Shown here: one piece after another, positions 16,325 through 56,871 of the stretch
Numbering within the stretch: position 1 is the first letter of the stretch
How the letters are laid out: each line of letters opens with the position of its first letter
DNA from: Bacteroidaceae bacterium
Lineage (GTDB): Bacteria > Bacteroidota > Bacteroidia > Bacteroidales > Bacteroidaceae
DNA length: 64,000 nucleotides
Direction: 5' to 3'
Assembly: GCA_017631315.1 (NCBI GenBank)
Contig: JAGBTN010000017.1
Span: 186,001-250,000 of the forward strand
Notes under the pieces: model-generated
What the model was told of the DNA's origin: nothing
Database searches by the model: none
The model's input: the letters and a program-made list of their open reading frames with translations, nothing else
Program-made: the position numbers and the translations under genes

Positions 16325-16412
16325 AAATAATGGTTAAGCATTATGGGCAAAATGCTTAACCATTATGGGCGGAAAGGTTAACCTTTATTATAATAATGCT
16401 TAACCATTATTT
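16325..16412. repeat. 4 x 22-base element 1
   Basis: Units start at 16325, 16347, 16369 and 16391. The 16-base core AATGCTTAACCATTAT occurs in units 2 and 4 and in inverse in unit 1. Unit 1 equals the reverse complement of unit 4 at 20 of 22 positions. Unit 3 holds the perfect palindrome AAAGGTTAACCTTT. It lies between the tRNA terminator and the end of the SLC13 gene. Confidence 0.8.
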
Positions 16413-16449
16413 ATGAGAAGGTCAGGCATCGCGTTTCTATTCTATCTCT

Positions 16450-18285
16450 TCAGAACGGGAACAGGAGTGGCAGGAGCAGCACCATTGCTATGCCGATGAT
16501 GAGTTGCAGTGGCAGTCCGACCTTGATGTAGTCCATAAACTTATATCCTCCGGCCTTCATGACGAGCGCATTGGGTGGGGTGGAGAAGGGCGAAGCGAAG
16601 CACATGCTTGCTGCTATGGCTACGGCAAACAGCATTGCCATTGGGTTTACTCCCACCTCTTGGGCTGAGGCAATGGCTATGGGCGACATCAAAACTGCTG
16701 TTGCTGTATTGGAGATGAAGAATGTGAGCAACGAGGTTGTGAGGTATATGCCAGCAAGAAGCAGTATGGGACCAAAGTCGCCCAGACTGTTGACCAATCC
16801 GTGAGAGACGATGGCGGCTGCGCCTGTCTTCTCGATAGCCACAGACATTGGCATCATTGCGGCAATGAGGATGATGCTTTCCCAGTTGATGGTCTTGTAG
16901 GCTGCCTCTACGCTCCTGAAGCATCCCGTAAGTATCATCAGCACGCTGGCCAGCAGAACGGCCGTAACGGGTGCTACGGGGATGAAGTCGAAGACCATCA
17001 TGCAGATCATCAGGAGCATGATGCTTGCAGCAATAGGTGCTTTGTGGTCGAAGGTGACGCGTGCGGCTTCTTCCAACGGCTGCCCCAAGACAACCCAATG
17101 GTCTTCGTCGTTTGCCAGCCTGCCTATTTGCTGCCATGTTCCTTGCACGAGGAGGACGTCGCCTTGCATCATTTTCTGTTCCGACAGATTCTCGCGGATG
17201 TATTCGTTGTTCCTTCTGATGGCCAATACATTTATGCTGTATTTCGAGCGGAAACCAGAGTCCTTCAGTTTCTTTCCGACGAACATGGATTGTTGCAGAA
17301 GTACTATTTCTGCCAAGCCGATGTCGTAGAAGTCGAGCGAATCGGTGTCGAAGGCCAGGGGCATTCGGTTCTCTCTTGCAAATCTGGCGGCGGCCTCTTC
17401 GGGTCCGGAGAAATAGATGATGTCGTCCTCTTGCAGTTTGGTGTCGGGCGTTGCCATCTTTTGTGCAATGTCCTTTATGATGCCTCTTTGCCTTGAACGC
17501 TGGCGTCTTACCTCAAGAACGGTGAGTTTGTATTCTTGTTGTATGTTTAGTTCTGCTATTGTTTTGCCTATGATGGGGCTGTTTTTGACGACGGTACTTC
17601 TTGTGACACGTTCGGCCAGATGGTATTCTTTTACCAGTTCTTTGAGCGTTTTGTTTTGGCTGACGTTTTTTTCTGACTTGCTTCCTCTGTTGCCAAGGAA
17701 CCATTTTGTCAGCGGCAGGAGTACGACGATGCCTATGGCAAGGCAGATGAGGCCTACGGGCAGGAAGGAGAAGAAGGAGAGGTTGCCATAGCCGGCGTCC
17801 TGGAGGGCTGCATCTATAACCAGGTTGGGTGGTGTACCGATGAGTGTAAGCATGCCGCCCATTGAACTTGCGAAAGCCAATGGCATGAGCAGTCTGCGGG
17901 AGTCTATGCTTGTGCTTGCTGACATGGAAACGACGATGGGCAGCATCAGGGCGACGGTTCCTGTGTTGCTCACGAATGCTCCGATGCCGCTTGTCACCAG
18001 CATGACGAGGAGGAAGAGCCGTATCTCGCTGTCGCCCGCCAGACTCATCAGTCGGCTGGATATCATTTTGGCAAGCCCGGTCTGGAATATGCCTCCGCCA
18101 ACGATGAAGAGTCCTGCCATCATGATGACCACAGGGTTTGAGAATCCGCTTAATGCCTCTTCGGGTGTGAGGATTCCGAACAGCAGCAGGGTAATGACGG
18201 CGCACAGGGCTACGATGTCGGCTCTGACTTTATTTAAGGCAAACAGGGTTGCCGTGATGGCGAGTACGATGAGTGTTATATACAT
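16450..18285 (-). CDS. SLC13-family (DASS) permease with two RCK_C/TrkA_C domains
   Basis: 611 residues. The N-terminal membrane half (about 1-190) includes SNTGTVALMLPIVVSM and the GTPPNLVIDAAL hairpin motif. The central cytoplasmic part (about 205-395) carries two TrkA_C-like domains (VVKNSPIIGKTIAELN...DDIIYFSG; FVGKKLKDSGFRSKYSINVLAIRR...GDVLLVQG). The second membrane half repeats the signature (FISNTATAVLMSPIAI, FSTPPNALVM). Members carry dicarboxylate, sulfate or similar anions with Na+; the substrate here is unknown. The TrkA_C pair suggests gating by a small ligand. Confidence 0.9.
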   Translation of the reverse strand: MYITLIVLAITATLFALNKVRADIVALCAVITLLLFGILTPEEALSGFSNPVVIMMAGLFIVGGGIFQTGLAKMISSRLMSLAGDSEIRLFLLVMLVTSGIGAFVSNTGTVALMLPIVVSMSASTSIDSRRLLMPLAFASSMGGMLTLIGTPPNLVIDAALQDAGYGNLSFFSFLPVGLICLAIGIVVLLPLTKWFLGNRGSKSEKNVSQNKTLKELVKEYHLAERVTRSTVVKNSPIIGKTIAELNIQQEYKLTVLEVRRQRSRQRGIIKDIAQKMATPDTKLQEDDIIYFSGPEEAAARFARENRMPLAFDTDSLDFYDIGLAEIVLLQQSMFVGKKLKDSGFRSKYSINVLAIRRNNEYIRENLSEQKMMQGDVLLVQGTWQQIGRLANDEDHWVVLGQPLEEAARVTFDHKAPIAASIMLLMICMMVFDFIPVAPVTAVLLASVLMILTGCFRSVEAAYKTINWESIILIAAMMPMSVAIEKTGAAAIVSHGLVNSLGDFGPILLLAGIYLTTSLLTFFISNTATAVLMSPIAIASAQEVGVNPMAMLFAVAIAASMCFASPFSTPPNALVMKAGGYKFMDYIKVGLPLQLIIGIAMVLLLPLLFPF

Positions 18286-18353
18286 TGTCTGTTGTTTATT
18301 TTTTTCGTTATATATTTGGGAGATTACCCGGAACGTGCATTTCTAATTTTGTG

Positions 18354-18361
18354 CAAAAGTA
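18354..18361 (-). promoter_or_regulatory. Promoter -7 box for the SLC13 gene
   Basis: TACTTTTG on the minus strand, about 70 bases upstream of the start. The rest of the 18362-19094 gap holds no visible gene; it contains the repeat element at 18630-18717. Confidence 0.5.
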
Positions 18362-18629
18362 GATAAAAAATGCGAAACCTCAAAGCATATTCCAGAATGG
18401 CACATGGGGCTTTATGTTTTTTTGTCTAAAAACATGAAGAAAATGATGAGGAATGAGGATTGATGGCATAGTTTTATGACGAATTGTTTTGCGCATATAT
18501 GCTTTTATGTATGTAGTAGGAGCGCATAATTCAGGAAGAAACCAACCGACAAAATGTAAGTTATTATCATGTATTTCGGTCTTTTTGTTATTTCTTCCAT
18601 TGTAAAGAAAGGCGACAAAACAAGTCGAT

Positions 18630-18717
18630 TTTGGTCATTAGGTACAGGATGTTTGCCAACGAGGCACGTTAAGTTGCCCAACATGCCACATTAAGTCTGC
18701 CAACGAGGCACGTTAAG
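18630..18717. repeat. 4 x 22-base element 2 (first unit degenerate)
   Basis: Three clear units at 18652, 18674 and 18696 share TGCCAACGAGGCACGTTAAG or a close variant. A diverged fourth copy (18630-18651) matches unit 2 at about 13 of 22 positions. Located in the long gap upstream of lysS. Confidence 0.7.
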
Positions 18718-19094
18718 TTCTGAATTATCCTACTGCTTTCCGAGCGAAAAATAACGTCGAAAAGTGTGAATTACCCTATAATATACGTGGTTTTAGCCAA
18801 GTGGAGATTCGGTTTTTCGTAATCACTTATACAAACGAAACCTCTAAGTTCTTGTTTTTCAGTATGTCTTTAATTTGAGAGAGATTTTCGAAAAAAATGC
18901 CCCAGGCCATGCCCGATGAGGTTTTAAGCCATTCTGACGCTTCTGCACGAAAAGCTTCTGTAAGCAAATAGCCCAGTTTCGTAACAAATTGTCACCATGC
19001 AAAAGTCCGCATTTCCAGTGAATAACATCCATACCATAAACAGAAGGAAACAGCCCGACATTGAGGCTTTCGTGACATTTTGAATTTATAAATT

Positions 19095-19124
19095 TTGAAT
19101 TTTGAAATATAAGTCGTACCTTTG
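19095..19124 (+). promoter_or_regulatory. Promoter of lysS
   Basis: TTG (19095-19097), 19-base spacer, TACCTTTG (19117-19124); 26 bases before the ATG. Confidence 0.8.
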
Positions 19125-19150
19125 CCCTCGTATAATTTTATATAATAAAA

Positions 19151-20926
19151 ATGAATATACTCGAATTGAGCGAGCAGGAAATCATCCGCCGCAATAACCT
19201 TCAGCAGTTGCGCGACTTGGGCATCGACCCATACCCCGCAGCAGAATATCCAACCAACGCATTCAGTACAGAAATAAAAGAAAGCTTCGTCGACCTGCCC
19301 GTAGTAGGTAAAGACGACGAAGGCAACGACATACGTGAAACCGCCACAAGCGAAAACAGTCGCAATGTCTGCATTGCAGGTCGCATCATGTCGAAGCGAA
19401 TCATGGGCAAGGCAGCCTTCGCAGAACTGCAAGACAGCAAAGGCCGCATACAAGTCTACATCACACGCGACGCCTTGGCAAACGGCGAAGACACAACACT
19501 CTACAATACCGTCTTCAAGAAACTGCTCGACCTCGGCGACTTCATCGGCATCAAAGGCTATGTCTTCCGTACACAAACAGGCGAGATAAGCGTGCATGCC
19601 ATGGAACTGACCGTCCTCTCCAAGAGCCTCAAACCGCTGCCCATCGTCAAGACCGATGCCGAGGGCAATGTCTACGACTCCTTCGACGACCCCGAACTCC
19701 GCTATCGTCAGCGATATGTCGACCTCATTGTCAACGACGGCGTTAAGGATACATTCCTCAAACGTAGCGTAATCCTCAGAACCATGCGTGCCTTCTTCGA
19801 CCGCCATGGCTACACCGAAGTGGAAACACCCACATTGCAAGCCATCGCAGGCGGTGCCTCCGCACGCCCCTTCATCACCCACTTCAACGCACTCAACATA
19901 CCCATGTACATGCGAATCGCCACCGAACTCTATCTCAAGAGACTCATCGTCGGTGGTTTCGAAGGCGTATATGAAATAGGAAAGAACTTCCGCAACGAGG
20001 GAATGGACAAGAATCATAATCCGGAATTCACTTGTATGGAGCTCTATGTCTCCTACAAGGACTACAACTGGATGATGACTTTCACCGAACAACTCCTCGA
20101 AGAAATCTGTATAGCCGTCAATGGAAAACCCGAAACGGAAATAGATGGCAAAGTCATCAGCTTTAAGGCACCCTTCCGTCGACTGCCCATTCTCGACGCC
20201 ATCAAAGAGAAAACCGGCTACGACCTCAATGGCATGAGCGAAGAAGAGATGCGCGAAGTTGCCAAGAAATGCGGCATAGAAGTGGACGACACCATGGGCA
20301 AAGGCAAACTCATCGACGAGATATTCGGCGAAACATGCGAAGGAACATTCATTCAGCCTACCTTCATCACAGACTATCCCGTTGAGATGTCGCCCCTCAC
20401 AAAAATGCATCGCACGAAACCGGGCCTTACCGAACGCTTCGAACTGATGGTGAACGGCAAGGAATTGGCAAATGCTTATTCCGAATTGAACGACCCCATC
20501 GACCAGGAAGAACGCTTCGTAGAACAGATGAAACTTGCAGACAAGGGCGACGATGAGGCAATGGTTATCGACCATGACTTCCTCCGCGCTCTGCAATACG
20601 GCATGCCTCCAACCAGTGGCATTGGCATTGGCATCGACCGCCTTGCAATGCTTCTGACGGGTAAGCCTTTCATTCAGGAAGTTCTTTTCTTCCCCCAGAT
20701 GAAACCCGAAGTGAAGGCTCCTCGCGATAAAGACGAACTCTTCCTCGAGAAGGGCGTGCCTTCCGACATCATTCCCATCCTTCGTAAAGCAGGCTACAAC
20801 TTGGTTTGCACCCTGCAAGGCGTTGCACCTGCCAAGACCCAGCAGCAGATAATAGAAATCATCAAGAAGTATAAACTTGAGGTCGAAAAGCCCTCTCAAG
20901 ACGTTATTGCGACTTGGACAGCTTAG
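19151..20926 (+). CDS. lysS: Lysyl-tRNA synthetase (class II)
   Basis: 591 residues. Charges tRNA-Lys. The N-terminal OB-fold anticodon-binding domain (about 55-165; NVCIAGRIMSKRIMGKAAFAELQD) is followed by the class II catalytic domain with motif 2 (KNFRNEGMDKNHNPEFTCME) and motif 3 (GIGIGIDRLAMLLTG). The C-terminal extension of about 70 residues (PRDKDELFLEKGVPSDIIP...) is usual in Bacteroidetes. Its end overlaps the gpsA start by 13 bases. Confidence 0.96.
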   Translation: MNILELSEQEIIRRNNLQQLRDLGIDPYPAAEYPTNAFSTEIKESFVDLPVVGKDDEGNDIRETATSENSRNVCIAGRIMSKRIMGKAAFAELQDSKGRIQVYITRDALANGEDTTLYNTVFKKLLDLGDFIGIKGYVFRTQTGEISVHAMELTVLSKSLKPLPIVKTDAEGNVYDSFDDPELRYRQRYVDLIVNDGVKDTFLKRSVILRTMRAFFDRHGYTEVETPTLQAIAGGASARPFITHFNALNIPMYMRIATELYLKRLIVGGFEGVYEIGKNFRNEGMDKNHNPEFTCMELYVSYKDYNWMMTFTEQLLEEICIAVNGKPETEIDGKVISFKAPFRRLPILDAIKEKTGYDLNGMSEEEMREVAKKCGIEVDDTMGKGKLIDEIFGETCEGTFIQPTFITDYPVEMSPLTKMHRTKPGLTERFELMVNGKELANAYSELNDPIDQEERFVEQMKLADKGDDEAMVIDHDFLRALQYGMPPTSGIGIGIDRLAMLLTGKPFIQEVLFFPQMKPEVKAPRDKDELFLEKGVPSDIIPILRKAGYNLVCTLQGVAPAKTQQQIIEIIKKYKLEVEKPSQDVIATWTA

Positions 20927-21909
20927 GAAACATAGCAGTATTGGGCGGAGGCAGTTGGGCAACAGCCATTGCCAAGATGCTTCTCGAGAAGAACGACCAT
21001 ATATGGTGGTACTTCCGGCGCGACGATCGCATTGAAGACTTCAAGCGCCTCGGCCACAATCCTGCATATCTTACCAGTGTTCACTTTGATGTGGACCGCA
21101 TTACCTTCGAGAGCGATATAAATAAGGTAGTGGAGGCATGCCAGACACTTATCTTTGTTACGCCTTCGCCCTACTTGAAAGGACATCTCAAACGCCTTCA
21201 TGTCCGTCTTCGCGATAAGTTGATTGTAACAGCCATCAAGGGCATTGTGCCCGACGAGAACCTCATCTGTTCCGATTATTTCAATCAGATGTATAATGTT
21301 CCTGAAGAGAATCTTGCGGTACTAGGTGGCCCGAGTCATGCCGAGGAGGTTGCCTTGAACCGACTTACCTACCTTACTGTTGGTTGCTCCGACCTTGAGA
21401 AGGCCAGGTTGTTTACCAAGATGCTTTCCAGCGACTACGTGAAGGCAAAGACGAGCGATGATGTTATTGGCATAGAATATGCAAGTGTTTTGAAGAACGT
21501 CTATGCCATTGCATCGGGTATCTGCCATGGGTTGAAGTATGGCGACAACTTCCAGGCTGTCCTCATCAGTAATGCCATCCAGGAGATGGAACGTTTCCTC
21601 AACACTGTCCACCCGATAGAACGCAGCATCATCGAAAGCGTTTATACCGGAGACTTACTCGTGACGGGTTATTCCAACTTCAGCCGTAACCGTGTGTTTG
21701 GTACGATGATTGGTCAGGGATATAGTGTGAAGAGTGCCCAGCTCGAGATGGAAATGATTGCCGAGGGCTACTTTGCCACGAAGTGCATGAAGGACATCAA
21801 CAAGCATCTGCACGTCAATATGCCCATCCTCGATGCCGTCTATAACATCCTCTACGAACGTATCAGCCCATCCATCGAGATTAAACTTCTGAGCGAAGCG
21901 TTCAGATAG
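20914..21909 (+). CDS. gpsA: NAD(P)H-dependent glycerol-3-phosphate dehydrogenase
   Basis: 331 residues. Reduces dihydroxyacetone phosphate to sn-glycerol-3-phosphate for phospholipid synthesis. N-terminal Rossmann motif AVLGGGSWATAIA; FVTPSPYL and TAIKGIVPDE precede the catalytic region, and LGGPSHAEEVA and the lysine in EYASVLKNVYAIASG match the family active site. The start is TTG at 20914, inside the end of lysS; no ATG or GTG gives a full Rossmann strand otherwise, so translation is probably coupled to lysS. Confidence 0.94.
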   Translation: MDSLGNIAVLGGGSWATAIAKMLLEKNDHIWWYFRRDDRIEDFKRLGHNPAYLTSVHFDVDRITFESDINKVVEACQTLIFVTPSPYLKGHLKRLHVRLRDKLIVTAIKGIVPDENLICSDYFNQMYNVPEENLAVLGGPSHAEEVALNRLTYLTVGCSDLEKARLFTKMLSSDYVKAKTSDDVIGIEYASVLKNVYAIASGICHGLKYGDNFQAVLISNAIQEMERFLNTVHPIERSIIESVYTGDLLVTGYSNFSRNRVFGTMIGQGYSVKSAQLEMEMIAEGYFATKCMKDINKHLHVNMPILDAVYNILYERISPSIEIKLLSEAFR

Positions 21910-21966
21910 ACCCCTTGCCCCCCTATAGAGGGAATAACTTCTTAAATAGTATAGGGTAAAAAGAAC

Positions 21967-22521
21967 ATGAAAAGCAAATCTTTCTTTTGTTTGCCTTCGC
22001 TGTTTTTATTATTGGGTTGTTCGCTTTCATGCAAGAACAAAATCGAGCAACGTGTTAGTGAGCAGTATCAGGATAGCATAGAATTACGCAAGTCCATTCA
22101 CATGTACAAATGCTATGCCTATCATCTCATAGCCAATGATAGTGTGAAAGAAGGTATCCACATCTTGGACTCTCTCTGGCAGACACATCATTTGGATGAC
22201 ATGATACCTTGTGGCATTGGTGCCGCCTATTACAAGCAGGGGGAATATGATTCTGCATTTTACTGGTTCCAGGTTTCAGAAGCATACATTGACAGCATGA
22301 TGGAGATTCAACCTTCTGAGAAATGGTTACGAGACAAATTGCCATTGGCCTACATTCTGAGGGGCAAAGAAGCCGCTCTGGAGGTGAAGATGTCGATGTC
22401 AGAGGAGTCAAAAGAACAGGCACATATATTCTTCGAGACTTTTTCCACTCCTAAAGACTTCTTGGAGAACACTGTCCTTACTGTGTTCAACTCGTTCAAG
22501 AGCAATGACTATGTGAGATAG
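21967..22521 (+). CDS. Hypothetical lipoprotein, TPR-like
   Basis: 184 residues. Lipoprotein signal MKSKSFFCLPSLFLLLGCSLSC (lipobox at LGCSLSC). The body is helical with a TPR-like segment (IPCGIGAAYYKQGEYDSAFYWFQVSEAYIDSM). No family recognised. It begins the three-gene block between gpsA and pgi and is followed by two secreted TlpA-type proteins, so it likely acts in the periplasm or outer envelope with them. Confidence 0.8.
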   Translation: MKSKSFFCLPSLFLLLGCSLSCKNKIEQRVSEQYQDSIELRKSIHMYKCYAYHLIANDSVKEGIHILDSLWQTHHLDDMIPCGIGAAYYKQGEYDSAFYWFQVSEAYIDSMMEIQPSEKWLRDKLPLAYILRGKEAALEVKMSMSEESKEQAHIFFETFSTPKDFLENTVLTVFNSFKSNDYVR

Positions 22522-22603
22522 CATGTCTAACCCGAAAAACTTCGAAAAGTAAAGGTGCAAGACATTCTGGGAGTAGCATTACACTATATAAATGTAAAAA
22601 GAT

Positions 22604-23653: not shown

Positions 23654-23692
23654 AAGCGACACTAATGTAATAATATATAAGGTATAAGGATT

Positions 23693-24742: not shown

Positions 24743-24765
24743 AACAAACCAAGCAGTAGCGTCTT

Positions 24766-24853
24766 CAAACTACACACGTGAACTTTGCAAACTACACACG
24801 TGAACTTTGCAATTTACACACGTGAAGTTTGTGATTTATCCACGTGTCGTTTT
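24766..24853. repeat. 4 x 22-base element 3
   Basis: Units begin at 24766, 24788, 24810 and 24832. The first two are identical; all four share a central CACGTG with AACTTTG or a variant at the end. Between the second TlpA-like gene and the pgi promoter. Confidence 0.85.
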
Positions 24854-24988: not shown

Positions 24989-25024
24989 CGCGCGGATTAG
25001 AAATCAACATTTAGGTATAAAGAT

Positions 25025-27164: not shown

Positions 27165-27252
27165 TCGACACCAAAAAGGTTGTTTTGCGACTTAACATGG
27201 GATGTTGGCAAACTTGACAGTAGAAGTTGGTCGACTTAACAGGTTAAGTTTT
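27165..27252. repeat. 4 x 22-base element 4
   Basis: Units begin at 27165, 27187, 27209 and 27231. Three begin with (T/G)CGAC, and units 2 and 4 share CGACTTAACA. Located downstream of the HAD gene, in the convergent gap 27067-27614. Confidence 0.75.
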
Positions 27253-27461
27253 CCTTTTACCTGTGCCTTGTTGGTCAGAAAGGTATGAGGGAATTGCCTG
27301 TTTGGCAGTAGATGTCGGGTTGTTTTCCACTTCAATTCCGATTTGTTGTTTTGTAATGCATGAAGAATCAGTGAGTTATAATTCTCTGTGAAATTCTGGA
27401 GAATCTGTACTGGGGTACAGGTTTGTGATTTCGATGCCCTTCTCGTACAATGGGAAAAGAG

Positions 27462-34808: not shown

Positions 34809-34840
34809 AACCAACAGCAAAACATTTCACGAGAGGTTTA

Positions 34841-34928
34841 CAAATTACTCCAGAGAAGTTGGCAAACTTCACACGAGAACTTTGCAATTTACTCTAGAGA
34901 AGTTTGCGAACTTCACACGTGACAATTA
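34841..34928. repeat. 4 x 22-base element 5 (perhaps five units)
   Basis: Units begin at 34841, 34863, 34885 and 34907. Units 1 and 3, and units 2 and 4, are near-copies of each other (AGAGAAGTT type; CTTCACACG type). A weaker unit may precede at 34819. Between slyD and aroC. Confidence 0.8.
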
Positions 34929-39108: not shown

Positions 39109-39196
39109 AAAACATCTACTGCCGAATTGGGCAAAAGGGTTAACCTTTCCGTGCGACTTGGCAGTAGATGTAGGCCAATTAGGCAGTAGATGTTTT
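39109..39196. repeat. 4 x 22-base element 6
   Basis: Units begin at 39109, 39131, 39153 and 39175. Unit 1 equals the reverse complement of unit 4 at 21 of 22 positions (core AAAACATCTACTGCC). Unit 2 contains AAAGGGTTAACCTTT. It lies between the divergent GH10-like and uvrA promoters. Confidence 0.85.
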
Positions 39197-42277: not shown

Positions 42278-42365
42278 AAAACATCTACTGCCAAGTTGCC
42301 CGACTTGACAGTAGATGTTGGCCATAATGGTGTGCCAAGTTGCCCAACTTGGCAGTAGATGTTTT
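42278..42365. repeat. 4 x 22-base element 7
   Basis: Units begin at 42278, 42300, 42322 and 42344. Unit 1 equals the reverse complement of unit 4 at 21 of 22 positions (core AAAACATCTACTGCCAAGTT). The element fills the gap between two convergent genes and touches the stop codon of the next gene (42366). Confidence 0.9.
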
Positions 42366-46068: not shown

Positions 46069-46232
46069 CCACTCGTCCTTTTGCGCAAATGGACTGCAGG
46101 CGTGAAAATCTTCCACTCGCCGGCTTCTAAAACTTCTCGTGAGTAATTGCCAAACTTCTGCAGAGAAGTTGCCCGACTTCTCTGCAGAAGTTGGCGAAGT
46201 TCTCTTGTGTGTTTTCTTAACCCCTTTCAAGG
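46069..46232 (+). repeat. 164-base dispersed repeat, copy A, containing 22-base element 8
   Basis: Matches 56708-56871 in inverse orientation with about 17 mismatches and no gaps (near 90% by eye). The left part (CCACTCGTCC..., TGGACTGCAGGCG) is unique to this family; the right part holds four 22-base units at 46128, 46150, 46172 and 46194, with units 2 and 3 complementary around CTTCTGCAGAGAAG. Between convergent genes. Confidence 0.88.
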
Positions 46233-49767: not shown

Positions 49768-50538
49768 TTAGAGGGTTTTGAAATAGACTTTTGCCTGACA
49801 AACAACTTCGTTCTCGTTCTTGCGTACTTCTATGTCTGTCTCGTTCTCGCTGACGGTCTGTTCGTAGAAGTTAAGTTTGTCGCCGAGATATGACTCTGCT
49901 TTATAGGCAATCTCGAAACGTGAAAGTTGTTTTTTTTCAAAGTCTTCACGAGAAAAGAGGTCAAGAATGTGTTCTATGTACTTTATACTATTGATATGTC
50001 CGTTGATGTCCACATCGCTGTAATAAGTGTTGATAGTACGTACTAACTTTGGATCGTTGAAACGAAAACGTCCATGACCTTCGATGGGACAAATGTTCTT
50101 CTCTTCCGGGACGATATAACGGAGAATGTCTCCATCGTATAGTGTCAGTAAGTCGCATGGCTTGCGTGTCTCCAGGTCAATCATAGCCCATACACTTCTT
50201 GCATAGCCAAGCACTGTACCATCGGAGCGTTGAATTGAGAAGTTACGGTTGGTAAATAACTTCATGACACTTTCTACCCAAGTCTTTACCTCACAATGCT
50301 CGTATTGCTTGGGCATTTCCTGCATTTCGATGCAGAGACGGGAGAGTACCCATGTGTGTTGAGTCTCGTTGAGTGCACCGATGCCCCAGCCACGTTTCTG
50401 CGAATGATTGCCTGCAGCATTGAGCAGATGGTTACCTAAAACTCCAAGAAAGATTTTACCGGTGAAGTCTACATGAAAAGGCTCTACATAGAAAGGGTGT
50501 GAGTCGATGTAGTTGTCTTTTATCTGTACGTTGTTCAT
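49768..50538 (-). CDS. Acyl-ACP thioesterase
   Basis: 256 residues from the chosen start. Two hotdog domains: N-terminal HPFYVEPFHVDFTGKIFLGVLGNHLLNAAGNH...WVLSRLCIEMQEMP, and C-terminal VRTINTYYSDVDINGHINSIKYIEHILDLF, where D-x-NGHINS is the catalytic loop of acyl-ACP thioesterases (PF01643 family). It releases fatty acids from acyl carrier protein. The ATG at 50538 lies 10 bases after the ilvN stop; the longer frame reaches into ilvN and is rejected. This gene commonly sits in the ilv operon of Bacteroides. Confidence 0.9.
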   Translation of the reverse strand: MNNVQIKDNYIDSHPFYVEPFHVDFTGKIFLGVLGNHLLNAAGNHSQKRGWGIGALNETQHTWVLSRLCIEMQEMPKQYEHCEVKTWVESVMKLFTNRNFSIQRSDGTVLGYARSVWAMIDLETRKPCDLLTLYDGDILRYIVPEEKNICPIEGHGRFRFNDPKLVRTINTYYSDVDINGHINSIKYIEHILDLFSREDFEKKQLSRFEIAYKAESYLGDKLNFYEQTVSENETDIEVRKNENEVVCQAKVYFKTL

Positions 50539-50548
50539 TCTGTTCAAT

Positions 50549-51433
50549 TTAATGATTTGTTTTCTCTTCCTTGGAACAGTTGGGAGATTCTCTCTCTTCT
50601 TCACGTTTGGCGATGTATGCATCAAGTCGTTCAACGCACGATTTGGTTACTGCAATTCGACCTGTGCGTACAAACTGTAATACACAGCCAATTGTATCGA
50701 GTTGTGTGAAGAGATCTATTACATCTGTTGTAATACCTGTATTCTCAACAATGGTATAGGTAGGATTAACCTCAACGAAACGTGCATCGAAGCGACGAAC
50801 AATACATGATATTTCTTTGTTGGCAAGTACCATTGGTGTAGAAAGTTTCAGCAAAGAAGTTTCAAGAATGAAGATTTCGTCATCGACGAAGCAGTTGGCT
50901 TGCAGAACATCGATTTTCTTTTCAATTTGTCTTGTGAGCATCTCCGCCATTTCCTGCTTGCAGTAACATGTAATGGTGTATTTATGTACACCGGGAGTAG
51001 AGGACGCACATACGTTAAGACTCTCAATGTTTACCTGTCTGCGAGTAAAGACAGCAGTAATCTGATTGAGTATACCTGCAAAGTTTTCCGAATAGATGAT
51101 GAGCGTGTATAGCGTCAATCCGTCATGGCTGAGCAGTGCTCCTTCGTGACCAGGTACAGTAGGACGAGCTACAGCATTACGGCTGAAAGTCTCCTTCTGT
51201 ATACCTTGTGCACTGTCTTGAGCGAATGTTGCACGACGTTGACGTGCAAGGTTCTTTTCGAAACTGTTGCGTTCGACGGCAGCAGCAGCAAGCACTGCAT
51301 CATTAAACTGTACGTCAACGTTCTTTGGAGAGTTTGAGTTCTGTGTCTCTTGTGATTGCTCAAGTTCGTCACATTTGCCACAAGTATTGCAATCGCCGCA
51401 TTCTGCGGCACCGAATTTGTTATTTGTTTTCAT
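50549..51433 (-). CDS. ilvN: Acetolactate synthase small subunit with a Cys-rich N-terminal extension
   Basis: 294 residues; usual length in relatives is about 160-190. The regulatory ACT domain starts near residue 106 (LTLYTLIIYSENFAGILNQITAVFTRRQVNIESLNV) with the family follow-on VHKYTITCYC and CIVRRFDARFVEVNP. The first 100 residues are extra: a cysteine cluster near the start (ECGDCNTCGKCDE) and a long low-complexity linker. The start codon lies 3 bases after the ilvB stop, so the extension is probably translated. The subunit stimulates and confers feedback control on IlvB. Confidence 0.88.
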   Translation of the reverse strand: MKTNNKFGAAECGDCNTCGKCDELEQSQETQNSNSPKNVDVQFNDAVLAAAAVERNSFEKNLARQRRATFAQDSAQGIQKETFSRNAVARPTVPGHEGALLSHDGLTLYTLIIYSENFAGILNQITAVFTRRQVNIESLNVCASSTPGVHKYTITCYCKQEMAEMLTRQIEKKIDVLQANCFVDDEIFILETSLLKLSTPMVLANKEISCIVRRFDARFVEVNPTYTIVENTGITTDVIDLFTQLDTIGCVLQFVRTGRIAVTKSCVERLDAYIAKREEERESPNCSKEEKTNH

Positions 51434-51436
51434 TGC

Positions 51437-53137
51437 TTAATTCACTTCTAAAAGCATTTCGTCCACATTTGCACCAGGAGGTGTCATAGGCAGGACATTG
51501 TCTTCCTCTTTTACAGCGCATTGCAAGAGGTATGGACCATCGGTTTCAAGCATCTCGCGAATGGCAGCATCAAGTTCTTCTCTCTCGACTACTGTACGGC
51601 ATGGGATATTATAACCGGCTGCTATCTTTTCATAATCGGGATTGAGCATGGGGGTGAATGAGTAGCGTTTGTTGAAGAACATATATTGCCACTGTCGCAC
51701 ATTACCCAAATAATTATTGTTCAGGAGAATCATCTTCACAGGAATCTGGTTCTCCATGATGGTGCCTAATTCTTGTATTGTCATCTGGAAACCACCGTCG
51801 CCACAGAACATACAAACTGTTCTGTCGGGAGCACCATAACATGCACCCATTGCAGCAGGTATGCCAAAACCCATTGTGCCGCAGCCACCGCTGGTAACAA
51901 TAGAACGTGGTTTGCTGAACTTAAAGTAACGACAACCAAACATTTGGTTCTGGCCGACATCCGTCACGAGAATTGCTTCGTTGTTGGCTGCCTCGCTTAC
52001 TTTGCGCACCACTTCGCCCATCAGTAGCGGGCCTTCTGTGGGATTCAGTGCAGCATCGATGACTTTTGTGTATTCCTTTTCGGCATATGGCTTAAAGCCT
52101 TCGATCCATGCCTTGTGAGTTGCTTTTTCAACAAGTTTTGTCACTTCTGGCAATGTCTGTTTGCAGTCGCCAAGTACCGATAAGGTTGGTTTGACGTTTT
52201 TGCCAAGTTCCGACGGGTCTATCTCGAAGTGTATGACCTTTGCTTGCTTTGCATACGCTTTAAGGTTACCTGTTACACGGTCATCAAAACGCATGCCGAC
52301 AGCGATGAGCAGATCGCATTGATTTGTCATGGTGTTCGGAGCAAGATTGCCATGCATGCCGAGCATACCCATGTTTAGAGGGTGGTCGGAAGGTGCGGCA
52401 GACAGACCAAGAATGGTCGATGCAAAAGGAATCTGTGCTTTCTCGCAGAGTGCAATCAACTCTTCGTTTGCTCCTGCAAGTTCAACGCCTTGACCGACGA
52501 GCATGAAGGGTTTCACGCTGTTGTTTATCATGCGTGCAGCCGTTTCGTATGCTCCTTCTTCAGGAAGCGGATATGGATTGTAACTGCGGATGAAGTCAAC
52601 CTTCTGCGGAGCGTATTCTATCATGGCCGTTTGAGCATTCTTTGCGAAGTCGAGTACAACAGGACCGGGTCTTCCGCTTTTGGCAATATAGAAAGCACGT
52701 GCCACAGCCCAGGGGATGTCTTCTGCACGTCGTATCTGGTAGTTCCATTTTGTGATGGGTTGCGTTACGCCTACTACATCGACTTCCTGGAAGGCATCTG
52801 TGCCAAGCATTGCAGCACCTACCTGACCACAAATGACAACCATTGGCGTGGAGTCTATCATGGCATCTGCCACACCTGTGATGGTGTTCATGGCACCGGG
52901 ACCGCTGGTTACGATGGCGCAACCGACTTTCCCGCTAACACGTGCATAGCCTTGTGCTGCATGAACAGCAGCTTGCTCGTGACGTACGAGGATGTGATGC
53001 AGTGTTTCTTTGTGGTCGTAGAGAGCATCGTAGGTGGGCATGATGGCACCACCGGGATAACCAAAGAGCACCTCTACGCCCTCATGCTCGAGGCTTCGCA
53101 TTAATGCCTCGGCACCGCTTATCTTTTCATTTGTCAT
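51437..53137 (-). CDS. ilvB: Acetolactate synthase large subunit
   Basis: 566 residues. ThDP enzyme joining two pyruvates (or pyruvate and 2-oxobutyrate). The catalytic glutamate is in FGYPGGAIMPTYDAL...HHILVRHEQAAVHAAQGYA; the ThDP/Mg site is GDGGFQMTIQELGTIMENQIPVKMILLNNNYLG; FAD-binding region MGMLGMHGNLAPN. Normal length. It is 3 bases upstream of ilvN and 3 bases downstream of ilvD, one transcript. Confidence 0.96.
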   Translation of the reverse strand: MTNEKISGAEALMRSLEHEGVEVLFGYPGGAIMPTYDALYDHKETLHHILVRHEQAAVHAAQGYARVSGKVGCAIVTSGPGAMNTITGVADAMIDSTPMVVICGQVGAAMLGTDAFQEVDVVGVTQPITKWNYQIRRAEDIPWAVARAFYIAKSGRPGPVVLDFAKNAQTAMIEYAPQKVDFIRSYNPYPLPEEGAYETAARMINNSVKPFMLVGQGVELAGANEELIALCEKAQIPFASTILGLSAAPSDHPLNMGMLGMHGNLAPNTMTNQCDLLIAVGMRFDDRVTGNLKAYAKQAKVIHFEIDPSELGKNVKPTLSVLGDCKQTLPEVTKLVEKATHKAWIEGFKPYAEKEYTKVIDAALNPTEGPLLMGEVVRKVSEAANNEAILVTDVGQNQMFGCRYFKFSKPRSIVTSGGCGTMGFGIPAAMGACYGAPDRTVCMFCGDGGFQMTIQELGTIMENQIPVKMILLNNNYLGNVRQWQYMFFNKRYSFTPMLNPDYEKIAAGYNIPCRTVVEREELDAAIREMLETDGPYLLQCAVKEEDNVLPMTPPGANVDEMLLEVN

Positions 53138-53140
53138 AAA

Positions 53141-54985
53141 TCAGTCTATTATTCTTATTCCACCTTTGTCTGCACTTGCCACCGATTGAGCATATGCTCT
53201 CAATGCTTTGCTTACGACGCGATTGCGGCGCAGCGGTTGTTGCGGACGAGCCGCGAGTTCTTCGTCGGTGAGTTTGACATTGATGGTGCGACTTGGAATA
53301 TCGATGACGATGATGTCGCCATCCTTTATTTTGCCTATGTTGCCACCGCTGGCTGCTTCGGGGCTGATGTGTCCGATTGAAAGACCGGAGGTGCCACCGG
53401 AGAAGCGACCGTCTGTAATGAGGGCACACTCCTTGCCCATGTGCATACTCTTTATGTATGAAGTGGGGTAGAGCATCTCCTGCATGCCGGGACCGCCTTT
53501 TGGTCCTTCGTGTGTGATGACCACGCAGTCGCCTTTCTTTACCTTACCGCTGAGGATGCCTTCGCAAGCATCTTCCTGAGAGTCGAAGACAACGGCAGGG
53601 CCTTCGAAGTGCCACAGTTCCGGAGCAACGCCTGCAGTCTTTACAACGCAACCGTCCTGAGCGATGTTACCGAAGAGGACTGCCATGCCGCCGTCTTTCA
53701 TGTAGGCATGTTCAATGTCGCGTATGCAGCCGTTTTCTCGGTCGGTGTCGAGTTCGTCCCAGTATGTTTCCTGTGAACCCATTACATTGCTGAACTTACC
53801 ACCTGGTGCACAACCATAGATGTCGCCTACCTCTTTGCTGATTGGTGCCATAAGGTCGTTGCTCCATGTGCCGTCTGCGTTGAGTGTGAGACCAGTGATT
53901 GAATACTTTTGTATGTCTTCGCCGAGCGTTGCACCATTGACGCGCTTGCAGGAGAGGTCGAGCAAGTTGCCTTTGGCGAGTTCTCCAAGTATGCCGAGTA
54001 TGCCGCCGGAACGGTTTTCCTCCTGTATGCTGTACTTCTGCCAGTTGGGTGAGAGTTTACAAAGGAAGGGAACCTTACGGCTCAGCGCATCGATGTCTTG
54101 CATCTTGAAGTCCACTTCGCCTTCTTGTGCAACAGCCAGCAGGTGGAGCACTGTGTTGGTGCTTGCGCCCATGGCAATGTCGAGTGTCATGGCGTTGAGG
54201 AATGCCTGACGTGTAGCAATGCTGCGTGGCAGAACCGATTCGTCGCCGTCCTGGTAGTATGCAAAGGCGTTTTTGACGATAATCTTTGCAGCATCCTTGA
54301 AGAGGTTTATACGGTTCTTGTGAGTGGCAAGGATGCTTCCGTTGCCGGGCAGAGAGAGGCCGATGGCTTCGGTCAGTGAGTTCATGGAGTTTGCTGTGAA
54401 CATGCCTGAGCAAGCACCACAGCCCGGGCAAGCCATCTGCTCTACCTTTGCCAGTTCTTCGTCGCTGACTGTAGTGTCGCCACCCTTCACCATGGCAGTG
54501 ATGAGGTCGGCATTTTCGCCATTCAGTTTGTGCGATTCCATCGGACCGCCACTGACGAAGACAGCAGGGATGTTCAGTCGCATGGCAGCCATCAGCATGC
54601 CGGGTGTCACCTTGTCGCAGTTGGAGATGCAAACCATGGCATCGGCTTTGTGTGCATTGACCATGTATTCCACCGAGTCGGCAATGATGTCGCGCGATGG
54701 CAGGGAGTAGAGCATACCGTCGTGTCCCATGGCAATGCCGTCGTCTATGGCAATGGTGTTGAACTCGGCGGCATAGCAACCGAGTTTTTCTATTTCTTGT
54801 TTTACGATTTGTCCTATTTCGTGGAGATGTGTGTGACCAGGAACAAATTGTGTGAACGAGTTGACAACTGCAATGATTGGTTTGCCGAACTGTTCGCGCT
54901 TCATGCCGTTAGCCACCCAGAGCGCTCTTGCTCCGGCCATGCGTCTGCCTTCGGTGCAGACAGCGCTGCGAAGTTTATGTTTCAT
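53141..54985 (-). CDS. ilvD: Dihydroxy-acid dehydratase
   Basis: 614 residues. Third step of valine/isoleucine synthesis. Fe-S cysteine motifs [14 protein letters not shown] and [20 protein letters not shown]-terminal [22 protein letters not shown]. Normal length. First gene of the ilvD-ilvB-ilvN-thioesterase unit, with a promoter box at 55023-55030. Confidence 0.97.
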
Positions 54986-55022
54986 TGTTTTGTGTGTTAT
55001 CCTTATAAAAAAATATGAGTTG

Positions 55023-55030
55023 CAAAGTTA
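55023..55030 (-). promoter_or_regulatory. Promoter -7 box for the ilv operon
   Basis: TAACTTTG on the minus strand, 38 bases before the ilvD start; a TTG complement about 20 bases upstream. No leader peptide rich in branched-chain residues was seen. Confidence 0.65.
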
Positions 55031-55153
55031 ATACAAATCTTTCATTTAGCCAACAAAACATCACTTTATTGTGCCGTATGTTCTCAAAATGATATTATAC
55101 CTTGCCTCTTGAGGTTCATTTGTTTAGCCACAAGGGAGCGAATAATGTATAAA

Positions 55154-55189
55154 ACAAAAGCATCTGCAAATGGATGCGGATGCTTTTGT
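55154..55189 (-). terminator. Terminator of the LRR gene
   Basis: ACAAAAGCATC (55154-55164) and GATGCTTTTGT (55179-55189) form an 11-base stem past the stop codon at 55211. Confidence 0.75.
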
Positions 55190-55210
55190 TGGGATTGTTG
55201 ATGACGTTTG

Positions 55211-56614
55211 TCAGTGTTTTATCAACACTTTCTTCGTTGTGCCGTCAGCGTTGCGGATGATGTTGATGCCCTTTTGAGCCTTATCAATGCGGCGGCCTTG
55301 CAGATCGTAACTGGTGCTTTCGCCTTGCTGTGTGTTGGCAATCTCGTCAATGCCGGTAATGATGTCCTGCTCTACGCTCAAGCGGTCGTTCCCTACGAGA
55401 GCCCATTGGTGTGCAGCCTGCGAACCGAGGACGATACCGTTGTCGCCATTCTTCATGTCGATGGGCGTAGGCTCAGCAGTAAGAACGAGACGGCCGTCTG
55501 CTCCGTTGGTGGCAAACTTCTTTGCGCCCAGGTTGTAGAGGTATTGCTCGCTGCCGTCTGTTATTACCTGCCAACTGTGATTGGGATTGTTCTCATCTAT
55601 GGCACTGACAGATTTAATGGTGCCGATGCAGTTGTTTACAGGGTCATATACAGAGTAGGTAAAGGTCTCTGCATCCATCAGTGTGTATGCTTGCTGCATA
55701 GCAACTTGTTCTTCTTCTGTTGCCGTCTCGCGTATGTTGTGGAAAAGATACCAAGTATCGTCGTATGCGTATGCATCCCAACAACCGGCAGGAACATAGA
55801 GCGTAGTGTGATAGTATGTTTGACTGGAAAAAGCACTCTCCCCTGTAGGTGGCGTAGCGCATTTAATAAGAACATTGCGTAACTTGCATCCATCGAATGC
55901 ATTGCGTCCTATGCTTGTTACGGAGTTTGGTATGGTGACAGAGGTAAGACTTTCGCAGCCATAGAATGCACTGCTTTTTATGCTTGTAACGGAGTTGGGT
56001 ATGGTAACAGAGGTAAGACCGGAGCAGCCATAGAATGTACCACTTCCTATACTTGTAACAGAGTTGGGAATATTGACAGAGGTAAGACCGGAGCAGCCAG
56101 AGAATGCATAGCCTCCTATGCTTGTAACGGAGTTGGGTATGGTGACAGAGGTAAGTCCGGAGCAGCCAGAGAATGCATCGCTTTCGATGCTTGTAACGGA
56201 GTTAGGTATAGTGATTGTGGTAAGACCTGTGCAGTTATAGAATACTCTGCTTACGATGCTTGTAACAGAGTTGGGAATATTGACAGAGGTAAGACCGGAG
56301 CAGCCAGAGAATGCATAGCTTCCTATGCTTGTAACTGAGTTGTGTATAGTAACAGATGTAAGACCAGAGCAGTTACGGAATGCACCATTTCCTATGCTTG
56401 TTACGGAGTATGTCTTTGCATTATATACAACAGATTCGGGAATAACGATGTCACCAGTGTAGGAGTTGTATGAAGTGTTTTCGTATGTCACTTCTGCTTC
56501 ATTTTCATTGAAATTATAATAAATGCCATCGATAAACGCATCGTAAGGAAATGTCTTGATGCAGGAAAACAGGCACATGAACAAGCATAAAAATTTGAGA
56601 TTAAGTAGTTTCAT
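55211..56614 (-). CDS. BspA-type leucine-rich-repeat surface protein
   Basis: 467 residues. Hydrophobic leader (MKLLNLKFLCLFMCLFSCIKTF), then about eight 23-residue LRR_5 repeats (about 70-255) of the form VTSIGxxAFxxCSGLTSVTIPNS, the last one diverged (IGRNAFDGCKLRNVLIK). A non-repeat domain follows (260-400; includes WQVITDGSEQYLYNLGAKKF), then a C-terminal tail SYDLQGRRIDKAQKGINIIRNADG...VLIKH of the sorting-tail type. Relatives (BspA family) mediate adhesion. The repeats are nearly identical at DNA level, which suggests recent duplication. Confidence 0.9.
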   Translation of the reverse strand: MKLLNLKFLCLFMCLFSCIKTFPYDAFIDGIYYNFNENEAEVTYENTSYNSYTGDIVIPESVVYNAKTYSVTSIGNGAFRNCSGLTSVTIHNSVTSIGSYAFSGCSGLTSVNIPNSVTSIVSRVFYNCTGLTTITIPNSVTSIESDAFSGCSGLTSVTIPNSVTSIGGYAFSGCSGLTSVNIPNSVTSIGSGTFYGCSGLTSVTIPNSVTSIKSSAFYGCESLTSVTIPNSVTSIGRNAFDGCKLRNVLIKCATPPTGESAFSSQTYYHTTLYVPAGCWDAYAYDDTWYLFHNIRETATEEEQVAMQQAYTLMDAETFTYSVYDPVNNCIGTIKSVSAIDENNPNHSWQVITDGSEQYLYNLGAKKFATNGADGRLVLTAEPTPIDMKNGDNGIVLGSQAAHQWALVGNDRLSVEQDIITGIDEIANTQQGESTSYDLQGRRIDKAQKGINIIRNADGTTKKVLIKH

Positions 56615-56655
56615 AATTTATGAGTATTGTGTGTCATTATTTCAAATCTACTTCG

Positions 56656-56663
56656 CAAAGTTA
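56656..56663 (-). promoter_or_regulatory. Promoter -7 box for the LRR gene
   Basis: TAACTTTG on the minus strand, 42 bases before the start. Confidence 0.6.
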
Positions 56664-56707
56664 TAAAATAGTTGGGAATATAGAGAAAAAGCATAAAAAA
56701 AATACCT

Positions 56708-56871
56708 CCTTGTGAGAGGTTAAGAAAACACTCAAGAGAACTTCGCCGACTTCTGCTGTGAAGTCGGGCAACTTCTCTGCAGAAGTTGGGCAATTACTCA
56801 CGAGAAGTTTTAGAAGCCGACGAGGGGCAGATTTTCGCGCCTGCAGTCCACTTGGCAAAACGGACGAGTGG
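56708..56871 (-). repeat. 164-base dispersed repeat, copy B, containing 22-base element 9
   Basis: Inverse copy of 46069-46232, equal length. Its four 22-base units start at 56725, 56747, 56769 and 56791 on the plus strand. It fills most of the 56664-56990 gap, which otherwise shows no gene. Confidence 0.88.

What the first reader, a model, noticed from the sequence alone, without database searches (positions are those of the whole stretch)
16325..56812. A family of intergenic elements built as four consecutive 22-base units
Seen in sequence: nine places (16325, 18630, 24766, 27165, 34841, 39109, 42278, 46128 and 56725) hold four adjacent 22-base units, 88 bases in all. Units differ in sequence between elements but follow one plan: a near-dyad such as AACTTC-(6-8 bases)-GAAGTT with C/G at the edges. 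In elements 1, 6 and 7 unit 1 equals the reverse complement of unit 4 at 20-21 of 22 positions; in element 8 units 2 and 3 are complementary; in element 3 units 1 and 2 are identical. All are between genes, seven of them at gene 3' ends. The constant unit length with free sequence suggests selection for a folded RNA or for protein binding on two DNA turns, or a replicating repeat with compensating mutations. I know of no described family with this plan.
Basis: seen in the sequence. Interest (0 to 1): 0.88.

Follow-up and report, generated by a model that had tools for sequence, protein, structure and literature searches.

The report
Evenly spaced four-site DNA arrays
This gut bacterium carries, between genes and at regular intervals of about 6.5 kb, short arrays of four tandem 22-base near-palindromic sites, and a related bacterium has the same layout with an unrelated sequence, which points to an undescribed protein-binding system that may help organise the chromosome.

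Summary
All nine places hold tandem 22-bp near-dyad units (seven with four, two with five). A unit profile finds 121 arrays in 859 kb of this genome (shuffles 0).

Against RNA folding: in the two main classes arms of a unit do not covary; perfectly matching arms are avoided (2 of 216 units, 17.6 expected).

For sequence-specific binding: in 49 ortholog pairs, unit interiors diverge 7.1%, junctions 17.8%, flanks 20.0%; the main class's constraint profile is dyad-symmetric (r 0.96).

Arrays are evenly spaced (mean 6.55 kb; CV 0.59, random intergenic placement 0.86; 0 spacings under 1.5 kb, 15.5 expected). A Prevotella MAG with unrelated units repeats this: four units in 33 of 40 arrays, one per 6.8 kb, CV 0.63 against 0.87. 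In 80 loci, nearly all Bacteroidales by title, non-coding dyad arrays peak at 22 bp once low-complexity DNA is set aside; 200 kb of E. coli has none.

In some congeners such units lie inside MITE-like elements.

Best reading: binding platforms for a dimeric DNA-binding protein, with a chromosome-scale role. Protein and role are inferred.

The parts
16325..16412 (.). array 1: four 22-bp units, TTAA class (AAATAATGGTTAAGCATTATGG ...)
   Evidence: ortholog in G023 87/88 identical
18612..18721 (.). array 2: five 22-bp units (CACG type), 430 bp upstream of lysS
   Evidence: ortholog in G023, 83/88 of the best four units
24766..24853 (.). array 3: four 22-bp units, units 1 and 2 identical; weaker further units beside it
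   Evidence: the counterpart in L028 has one unit fewer, by reading
27165..27274 (.). array 4: four 22-bp units plus a weaker fifth
   Evidence: ortholog in G023, 77/88
34819..34928 (.). array 5: five 22-bp units (begins AAAACATTT)
   Evidence: ortholog in G023, 77/88
39109..39196 (.). array 6: four 22-bp units with terminal arms AAAACATCTACTG / CAGTAGATGTTTT
   Evidence: ortholog in G023, 79/88
42278..42365 (.). array 7: four 22-bp units, same terminal arms; as a query it gives 99 matches at E<=1 in its own genome, many on both strands of one place
   Evidence: ortholog in G023, 86/88
46129..46216 (.). array 8: four 22-bp units, CTTCT class, in a longer repeat with shared flanks
   Evidence: ortholog in G023, 86/88
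56724..56811 (.). array 9: four 22-bp units, CTTCT class, near reverse complement of array 8
   Evidence: no ortholog resolved

Best explanation
Each 22-bp unit is a binding site for a homodimeric (or symmetric) DNA-binding protein. Four sites at two-turn spacing put four dimers in tandem on nearly one face of the DNA, so the array is a high-occupancy, probably cooperative, binding platform. The arrays lie between genes, about one per 6.5 kb, evenly enough to suggest a chromosome-scale function such as nucleoid folding, supercoil-domain boundaries, or insulation between (often convergent) transcription units. At least two Bacteroidales lineages keep the geometry (mostly four sites, 22 bp) with unrelated site sequences, so protein and sites would change together or be replaced; the copies probably spread as MITE-like mobile elements and were then kept by selection. 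SHOWN by computation: geometry, copy number, intergenic position, per-unit dyad-symmetric constraint, lack of arm covariation in the main classes, avoidance of perfectly matching arms, even spacing, a second unrelated dialect with the same geometry and spacing, MITE-like forms in congeners. INFERRED: that a protein binds, that it is a dimer, cooperativity, and the chromosome-scale role. The protein is not identified.
For: Geometry: 66 arrays in 464 kb at score >=20, 0 in shuffles; 121 in 858,965 b of G000 and 119 in 779,237 b of G023, 0 in shuffles of each. Constraint: 56 of 121 arrays anchored in the G023 stretches held, 49 used (7 dropped for gaps): positions 3-20 251/3527 = 7.1%, junctions 139/782 = 17.8%, flanks 388/1936 = 20.0%, Fisher P 4e-18; TTAA-class profile mirrors itself, r 0.96 over 11 position pairs (full profile 0.92, 0.21-0.62 when the mirror is shifted by 1-3). 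Independent arms: of 28 arm pairs none above z 1.6 in 18 fixed-end elements; in 22 TTAA elements one at 2.7 (left with left arm) and most left-right pairs depleted; second dialect 80 of 163 units with identical outer dinucleotides, 76.5 expected. Even spacing: CV 0.59 vs 0.86 in G000, 0.52 vs 0.86 in G023, P < 1/1000; holds at four thresholds and between classes and under three stricter nulls, P < 1/2000, on 117 and 113 arrays; independent replicate in G163, P 0.0045 for spacings <1.5 kb, 0.015 for CV. Peak at 22 bp in 80 loci after a complexity filter: 26 arrays, next 7 at 14 bp; none in 200 kb of E. coli.
Against: No binding protein is identified and no systematic search for one was made. 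G000 and G023 arrays are orthologous, so their spacing is one result, not two; on contig C17 alone the lower CV was not significant (P 0.23), only the lack of close pairs (P 0.001). Most genomes seen carry fewer arrays or none of this sequence: 6 of 139 genomes of the genus; P. gordonii shows four at 22-23 bp in 200 kb and a Bacteroides MAG six at 22 bp in 180 kb, nearly all with different sequences, which fits one genome-wide protein poorly. In G163 the arrays have conserved leader/tail sequences in a 153-bp element, as a mobile element would. Without the complexity filter 14 bp (35 arrays, shuffled 4) nearly equals 22 bp (38, shuffled 0). For covariation: mirror double substitutions 30 vs 21.8 expected; three arm pairs at z 2.0-2.3 in the six CTTCT elements, one within a unit; the mixed class of 20 folds better than its permuted null (z -3.0) and was not. 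Even spacing could come from transposition immunity.
Confidence: 0.5

Rival explanations
1. Mobile elements only: the arrays are MITE-like non-autonomous elements whose tandem 22-bp units are transposase-binding sites; even spacing results from target immunity (no insertion near a resident copy) plus loss of harmful insertions, without a host function.
For: In G019, G126 and G154 most arrays inspected (1 to 6 units) lie inside elements with inverted ends near AAGTTTCGGRTGTTCYG; L207 has one unit and a perfect 11-bp duplication ATACATCTAAT on both sides. G163 has a 153-bp family with leader and tail found in 2 of 60 genomes, G163 itself and one weak hit. [quoted passage not shown]
Against: In G000 no such outer parts were found; the 88 bp is the unit of homology except in the CTTCT class. 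All 56 anchored loci keep an array in both species. Per-unit constraint long after insertion needs selection, which pure selfishness does not give. Even spacing crosses sequence classes, so immunity would have to be shared. No Y1/RAYT gene in the four carriers searched; no Mu/TnsB-type C-terminal domain in 7 carriers, a search in which no control genome rang.
Confidence: 0.27
2. RNA-level element: the arrays act in transcripts as tandem hairpins (terminators, 3'-end stabilisers, or protein-binding RNA), mostly at gene 3' ends.
For: Half of convergent gaps are occupied (42 of 84; tandem 53 of 300; divergent 22 of 86). Elements fold better than mononucleotide shuffles (mean z -5.3, -6.0, -6.4 and -2.1 in the four classes). 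Terminal arms often end in A and T runs. Mild excess of mirror double changes (30 vs 21.8).
Against: TTAA-class elements fold WORSE than slot-permuted recombinants of themselves (z +4.2) and fixed-end elements equal theirs; perfectly matching arms 2 where 17.6 are expected; 114 paired-to-unpaired against 44 paired-to-paired among changed arm pairs. 22 of 86 divergent gaps hold an array. Terminators have no reason to be evenly spaced. In G163 convergent gaps are not clearly favoured (9 of 31; divergent 11 of 32; tandem 20 of 102). Rfam at gathering threshold: only a tRNA in the window.
Confidence: 0.1
3. Self-recognition signals: arrays mark conspecific DNA for uptake or recombination, as uptake sequences do in Neisseriaceae and Pasteurellaceae, which also form species dialects and are evenly spaced.
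For: Lineage-private dialects, hundreds of copies by extrapolation, even spacing. Even spacing of uptake sequences was noted by Karlin et al. and read as replication, repair or compaction (passage of PMC1939737).
Against: Uptake sequences are short single motifs (recalled), not 88-bp arrays of four. Nothing here links the arrays to competence genes; not tested.
Confidence: 0.07

Closest known systems
BrickBuilt, 23-nt minisatellite within a MITE of Porphyromonas gingivalis (PMC4596501; abstract, section 5 and section 7 part 1 read)
   Same: Bacteroidales; intergenic tandem repeats of 22-23 nt, and, in the congeneric forms here, a leader and a tail with inverted-repeat ends
   Different: BrickBuilt has 19 copies in ATCC 33277 with 1 to 22.8 units and IS5-type ends; here four units prevail, about 350-380 copies are extrapolated, units are near-palindromic, no leader or tail was found in G000 outside the CTTCT class, and copies are evenly spaced
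REP/BIME elements and RAYTs (PMC3733652; abstract and section 15 read)
   Same: Many intergenic palindromic units, often at convergent gene ends
   Different: REPs are 20-40 bp with GTAG/CGTC tags, and RAYTs are tied to the GTAG type; here no Y1 transposase in the four carriers searched, tandem 22-bp units, and perfectly matching arms avoided
Plasmid iterons and Tn7-end TnsB sites (iterons recalled; Tn7 from passages of PMC11406308)
   Same: Arrays of about 22-bp sites that load a DNA-binding protein; Tn7's right end has four
   Different: Those are replication origins or transposon ends, and Tn7's sites partly overlap; here many near-palindromic arrays lie along a chromosome
DNA uptake sequences (PMC1939737 passages; PMC3630211 search listing only)
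   Same: Genome-wide, evenly spaced, species dialects
   Different: Short single motifs (recalled); here 88-bp four-site intergenic arrays

Membership tests
REP/BIME (RAYT-associated palindromes) | Y1/RAYT transposase partner in the genome | tested here: not met
   PF01797: none in G000, G023, G019, G005 (incomplete MAGs; G126, G154, G163 not searched); 19 of 41 genomes ring
REP/BIME (RAYT-associated palindromes) | hairpin-forming unit with GTAG or CGTC tag | tested here: not met
   no common tag seen on reading the units, not counted; perfectly matching arms avoided in the TTAA class
BrickBuilt | 23-nt repeat unit, variable copy number | tested here: not met
   22 bp, four units prevail
BrickBuilt | leader and tail with inverted-repeat ends | tested here: not met
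   own-flank inverted similarity 7.6 against 8.0 for flanks of other arrays, 65 arrays of G000; analogous parts with different ends occur in G019, G126, G154
MITE (general) | terminal inverted repeats and target-site duplication | tested here: inconclusive
   met in G019 (L207: 11-bp duplication); not met for G000 arrays
MITE (general) | filled and empty sites between relatives | tested here: not met
   all 56 anchored loci (of 121 arrays) hold an array in both G000 and G023; only this pair was compared
Intrinsic terminator / structured RNA | base pairing kept by compensatory change | tested here: not met
   (exceptions: 30 vs 21.8 mirror double changes, and the six CTTCT elements); no Rfam match to an array
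Tn7/Mu-type transposon ends | TnsB/MuA-type transposase in carriers | tested here: inconclusive
   PF09299: 0 of 7 carriers, but no control genome rang
Protein-binding site array | site-shaped purifying selection with free linkers | tested here: met
   7.1% interior, 17.8% junction, 20.0% flank; mirror r 0.96
Protein-binding site array | a protein shown to bind | not testable with these tools
   needs pulldown, ChIP or in vitro binding
CRISPR array | identical repeats separated by unique spacers | tested here: not met
   units abut without spacers and mostly differ from each other
DNA uptake sequence | preferential uptake of motif-bearing DNA | not testable with these tools
   needs transformation assays

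The most novel reading that the evidence does not exclude
Bacteroidales carry an order-wide chromosomal lattice: four-site, 22-bp-period binding arrays placed every 6-7 kb between genes, read by a fast-changing DNA-binding protein so that each lineage has its own site sequence while number of sites, period and spacing stay fixed. It would be a bacterial chromosome-organising system built from domesticated MITE-like elements.
Probability: 0.35. Interest if true: 0.96.

Novelty: categorically new. Interest (0 to 1): 0.87.

Why it matters
How bacteria outside the model species fold and insulate their chromosomes is largely open, and few cis-elements with chromosome-wide regular spacing are known. 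Here a class of intergenic element keeps its geometry (mostly four sites, 22 bp, one per 6-7 kb) in two genomes whose site sequences are unrelated, 22-bp arrays with other sequences recur across the 80 loci scanned, and the sites are under selection in the one species pair tested. That makes testable questions out of (i) which protein reads it, (ii) whether it sets domains or insulates genes, and (iii) how protein and hundreds of sites change together. Even if the arrays prove to be transposon relics, evenly spaced copies that persist under selection would be an unusual case of domestication or of insertion immunity written along a chromosome. I rate it categorically new because no known family tested here is met on its defining features by the G000 form; the congeneric MITE-like form is closer to a known kind.

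Tried and rejected
RNA structure with covariation: rejected for the main classes. P. gingivalis BrickBuilt, my first guess from G+C content and repeat length: rejected on unit length, unit number and flanks; the 80 lysS loci kept (the best of 584) are Bacteroidota, nearly all Bacteroidales by record title, many of them animal-gut MAGs. REP/RAYT: rejected. CRISPR: rejected by reading. The terminal repeats of the congeneric MITE were not found around G000 arrays, apart from shared flanks in the CTTCT class and weak degenerate units in the outer slots. An autonomous parent transposon with the GTTTCGG ends was not seen among the pattern hits in six genomes (ORFs were listed for two loci only). Conserved position upstream of lysS: ten arrays in the last 500 bp, a density of 5.7 per 10 kb of non-coding DNA that other bins match or exceed, so not claimed. 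A within- against between-unit pairing test on agnostically found arrays gave lower within-unit pairing, but it selects for between-unit dyads and is treated as inconclusive. Mu/TnsB-type transposase: 0 of 7, controls silent, inconclusive. On checking this report I found that the unfiltered period scan also had 35 arrays at 14 bp; one search shows that 28 of these fall to a filter for A+T-rich or low-diversity DNA, as do 12 of 38 at 22 bp.

Literature: eight searches for such repeats in the open-licence PubMed Central library, and one each on uptake sequences and Tn7, listed no family with this plan; most subscription papers are not held, so absence from print is not shown.


Full report
OBSERVATION. 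A score that knows no sequence (direct plus dyad matches among four units) puts eight of nine above the maxima of five shuffles (0.97-1.43 against 0.74-0.80); the ninth (39109, 0.76) is carried by its family ends and by the unit profile. Period 22 stands out among 16-29. Two arrays have five units (18612-18721, 34819-34928) and two were off by one base. A palindromic 22-bp unit profile trained on 46 seed arrays scores 11-13 in slots 1-4, about -8.6 in the slot on each side and -17 in background. It finds 66 arrays (score 20 or more) in 464 kb with none in shuffles; without fixing the number of units, runs of 3, 4, 5 and 6 number 11, 41, 14 and 5, against none longer than 2 in shuffles. Extended to 858,965 b there are 121 arrays, and 119 in 779,237 b of the sister genome G023, with none in shuffles. 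Part of the G000 stretches were chosen for known hits; contig C17 (324 kb held) gives 43 arrays, so about 350-380 per genome is an extrapolation.

WHAT A UNIT LOOKS LIKE. Units read as a 9-base arm, a 4-base centre and a 9-base arm, roughly CC(A/G)A...GG-NNNN-CC...T(T/C)GG, in several classes: TTAA centres (54 of 121), fixed outer arms AAAACATCTACTG / CAGTAGATGTTTT (25), CTTCT...AGAAG (9) and others (33). Arrays lie between genes (3 of 121 overlap a called gene by more than 30 bp) and occupy 42 of 84 convergent, 53 of 300 tandem and 22 of 86 divergent gaps of at least 30 bp. The gene calls are my own simple caller.

NOT A FOLDED RNA, IN THE MAIN CLASSES. Complementarity between arms of one element is not above what arms of other elements give: of 28 arm pairs, the 18 fixed-end elements have none above z 1.6; the 22 TTAA elements have one at 2.7 (left arm with left arm) and most left-right pairs are depleted. 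The six CTTCT elements have three pairs at z 2.0-2.3, one of them within a unit; the 20 mixed elements were not tested. In 54 TTAA elements perfectly matching inner arms (7 bases) occur 0, 1, 0 and 1 times in the four slots, against 4.5, 5.1, 5.1 and 3.0 expected. Of 242 TTAA-centred units only 3 have identical arm words and a symmetric centre; in G023 4 of 237. TTAA elements fold worse than slot-permuted recombinants (z +4.2), fixed-end elements equal theirs, CTTCT elements lie at z +1.5, and the mixed class of 20 folds better (z -3.0), as expected if permutation mixes dialects; every class folds better than mononucleotide shuffles, which a shared palindromic consensus explains. Between species, changed arm pairs go from paired to unpaired 114 times, stay paired 44, become paired 83 and stay unpaired 83; mirror double changes are 30 against 21.8 expected, a mild excess against my reading.

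SELECTION ON EACH UNIT. G023 is a close congener; one of its contigs has 177,758 bases, the length of the contig behind L028 (roe deer colon MAG RGIG4268), so I take them as the same genome. Of 121 G000 arrays, 56 could be anchored on both sides in the G023 stretches held; all 56 keep an array there. The interval between anchors differs by about one or three unit lengths at five loci, and at one (L244:2550) by a longer insertion with two arrays. In 49 pairs (7 dropped for gaps) interiors (positions 3-20) diverge 7.1%, junctions 17.8% and the first 20 flanking bases 20.0% (Fisher P 4e-18). Arrays were chosen by their score in G000 only, which would raise, not lower, divergence at consensus positions. 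In the TTAA class the profile mirrors itself about the dyad (r 0.96 over 11 position pairs; as a full profile 0.92, against 0.21-0.62 when the mirror is shifted by 1-3). This is what a symmetric protein reading each half-site separately would leave. The slots outside the array are weak degenerate units with little constraint (16.7% at their centres, 21.7% elsewhere).

EVEN SPACING. Arrays avoid each other. In G000 mean spacing is 6.55 kb, CV 0.59 against 0.86 for random intergenic placement weighted for gene orientation; spacings under 1.5 kb number 0 (15.5 expected), under 2.5 kb 10 (29.3). G023 gives CV 0.52 (0.86), 2 (16.3) and 6 (30.9); no draw of 1000 was as even. The effect holds at thresholds 10-30 and between classes (pairs of different class within 3 kb at threshold 20: 4 and 4, 15.9 and 16.9 expected), and when only gaps of at least 100 or 150 bp, or strand switches, may be hit (117 and 113 arrays, P < 1/2000). 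G000 and G023 share arrays and are one result. An earlier test on C17 alone, with 43 arrays and a 41-kb empty stretch, showed the lack of close pairs (2 against 9.3, P 0.001) but not a significantly lower CV (P 0.23).

A SECOND, UNRELATED DIALECT. I scanned 80 lysS loci (flanks up to 10 kb) without a sequence model, counting four-unit dyad arrays outside long ORFs. Unfiltered counts are 38 at 22 bp (25 loci), 35 at 14, 12 at 21, 8 at 23 and at most 9 at any other period from 15 to 33; shuffles give 0 at 22 and 4 at 14. With A+T-rich and low-diversity DNA set aside, 26 remain at 22 bp (20 loci), 7 at 14, 5 at 23 and at most 2 elsewhere, shuffles 0; 20 of the 26 lie outside the two genomes studied closely. 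Sequences differ from species to species by reading. In the genome of L064 (a Prevotella MAG, G163) the unit is AAACG-NNN-CGTTT: 116 perfect sites in 280 kb (0-1 in five shuffles). Of 54 runs of sites, 10 are single, 4 double, 2 triple, 33 have four and 5 have five units. The 40 runs of three or more are evenly spaced: mean 6.77 kb, CV 0.63 against 0.87 (P 0.015), none under 1.5 kb (5.0 expected, P 0.0045), 2 under 2.5 kb (10.0). Arms are again independent (80 of 163 identical outer dinucleotides, 76.5 expected). A G163 array had no match in 9 other genomes, and a 153-bp copy with flanks only one weak match in 59 relatives. In 200 kb of E. coli K-12 the scan finds nothing at periods 16-30; in the same call G000 gives 95 at 22 and 2 at 16, G163 27 at 22. 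P. gordonii (200 kb: 2 at 22 bp, 2 at 23) and a Bacteroides MAG (180 kb: 6 at 22) have few arrays, nearly all with their own sequence, so density and uniformity vary much among species.

ORIGIN. The G000 family is in 6 of 139 genomes of its genus and in none of 30 other genomes drawn from the phylum. In G019, G126 and G154 most arrays inspected, with 1 to 6 units, lie between a leader and a tail with inverted ends near AAGTTTCGGRTGTTCYG; two in G019 and the one in G005 show no such ends. L207 shows one unit in such an element with a perfect 11-bp direct duplication. In G163 leader and tail recur in many copies. So the arrays likely spread as MITE-like elements; in G000 the outer parts would have gone while the units stayed (inference).

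INTERPRETATION. Established: geometry, abundance, position, unit-level constraint, missing covariation in the main classes, avoidance of matching arms, even spacing in two unrelated dialects. Inferred: a symmetric DNA-binding protein, cooperative loading on four sites, and a chromosome-scale role. I put about 0.8 on 'sites for a DNA-binding protein' and about 0.5 on the whole statement. The main rival is target immunity of a mobile element without host function; it explains spacing and mobility but not lasting per-unit constraint. Avoidance of matching arms may protect four tandem dyads from cruciform extrusion or deletion, or may follow from tandem duplication of an asymmetric unit; neither was tested.

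KNOWN FAMILIES. BrickBuilt of P. [quoted passage not shown]), and uptake sequences in even spacing and dialects. No known element family tested is met on its defining features by the G000 form (membership table). The literature searches listed no description; the library lacks most subscription papers.

Noticed in passing
window 1-16000: No array in the first 16 kb, against about one per 6.5 kb elsewhere; it holds an Eco57I-type methylase/restriction-like gene (4104-7520), may be an acquired island, and lies in a 41-kb stretch of the contig (161.5-202.3 kb, 6 kb of it not fetched) without a found array.
   Followed up: partly
window 46129-46216 and 56724-56811; also L109:12701, L117:10072, L118:6014, L122:19135, L125:17311: CTTCT-class arrays share flanks (local alignment scores 35-59 over 80-base flanks on one side), so they are cores of a longer repeat; in L117 (9984-10159) about eight 22-bp units, some degenerate, lie in a row.
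   Followed up: partly
L110:17389-17476 and L112:10276-10363 (own genome): Further 22-bp tandem repeats with other unit sequences (TGTCAAATCGATTGCACTTACA...; TTGAATGGTCATGATGCAACAA...), not picked by the unit profile; not checked for coding.
   Followed up: no
L207:1395-1534 (G019): MITE-like element with a single 22-bp unit and a perfect 11-bp direct duplication ATACATCTAAT at both sides.
   Followed up: yes
L270-L276, L285-L291 (G163): Many G163 arrays carry a leader near GTAACYCATTGATAATCAGYGGGGT on one side and a tail near GGCAGGCTTTGATTTTTGATACG on the other.
   Followed up: partly
L097:9766 and 15729; L091:9603: Parabacteroides and Bacteroides loci with 21-bp arrays of related sequence (CTATCTTTAGGCTAAAGATAG).
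   Followed up: no
L114:6608, L118:16985, L124:16895, L244:5079, L256:4124 (own genome) against G023: Orthologous array loci whose length differs by about one or three 22-bp units, so unit number changes although four prevails.
   Followed up: partly
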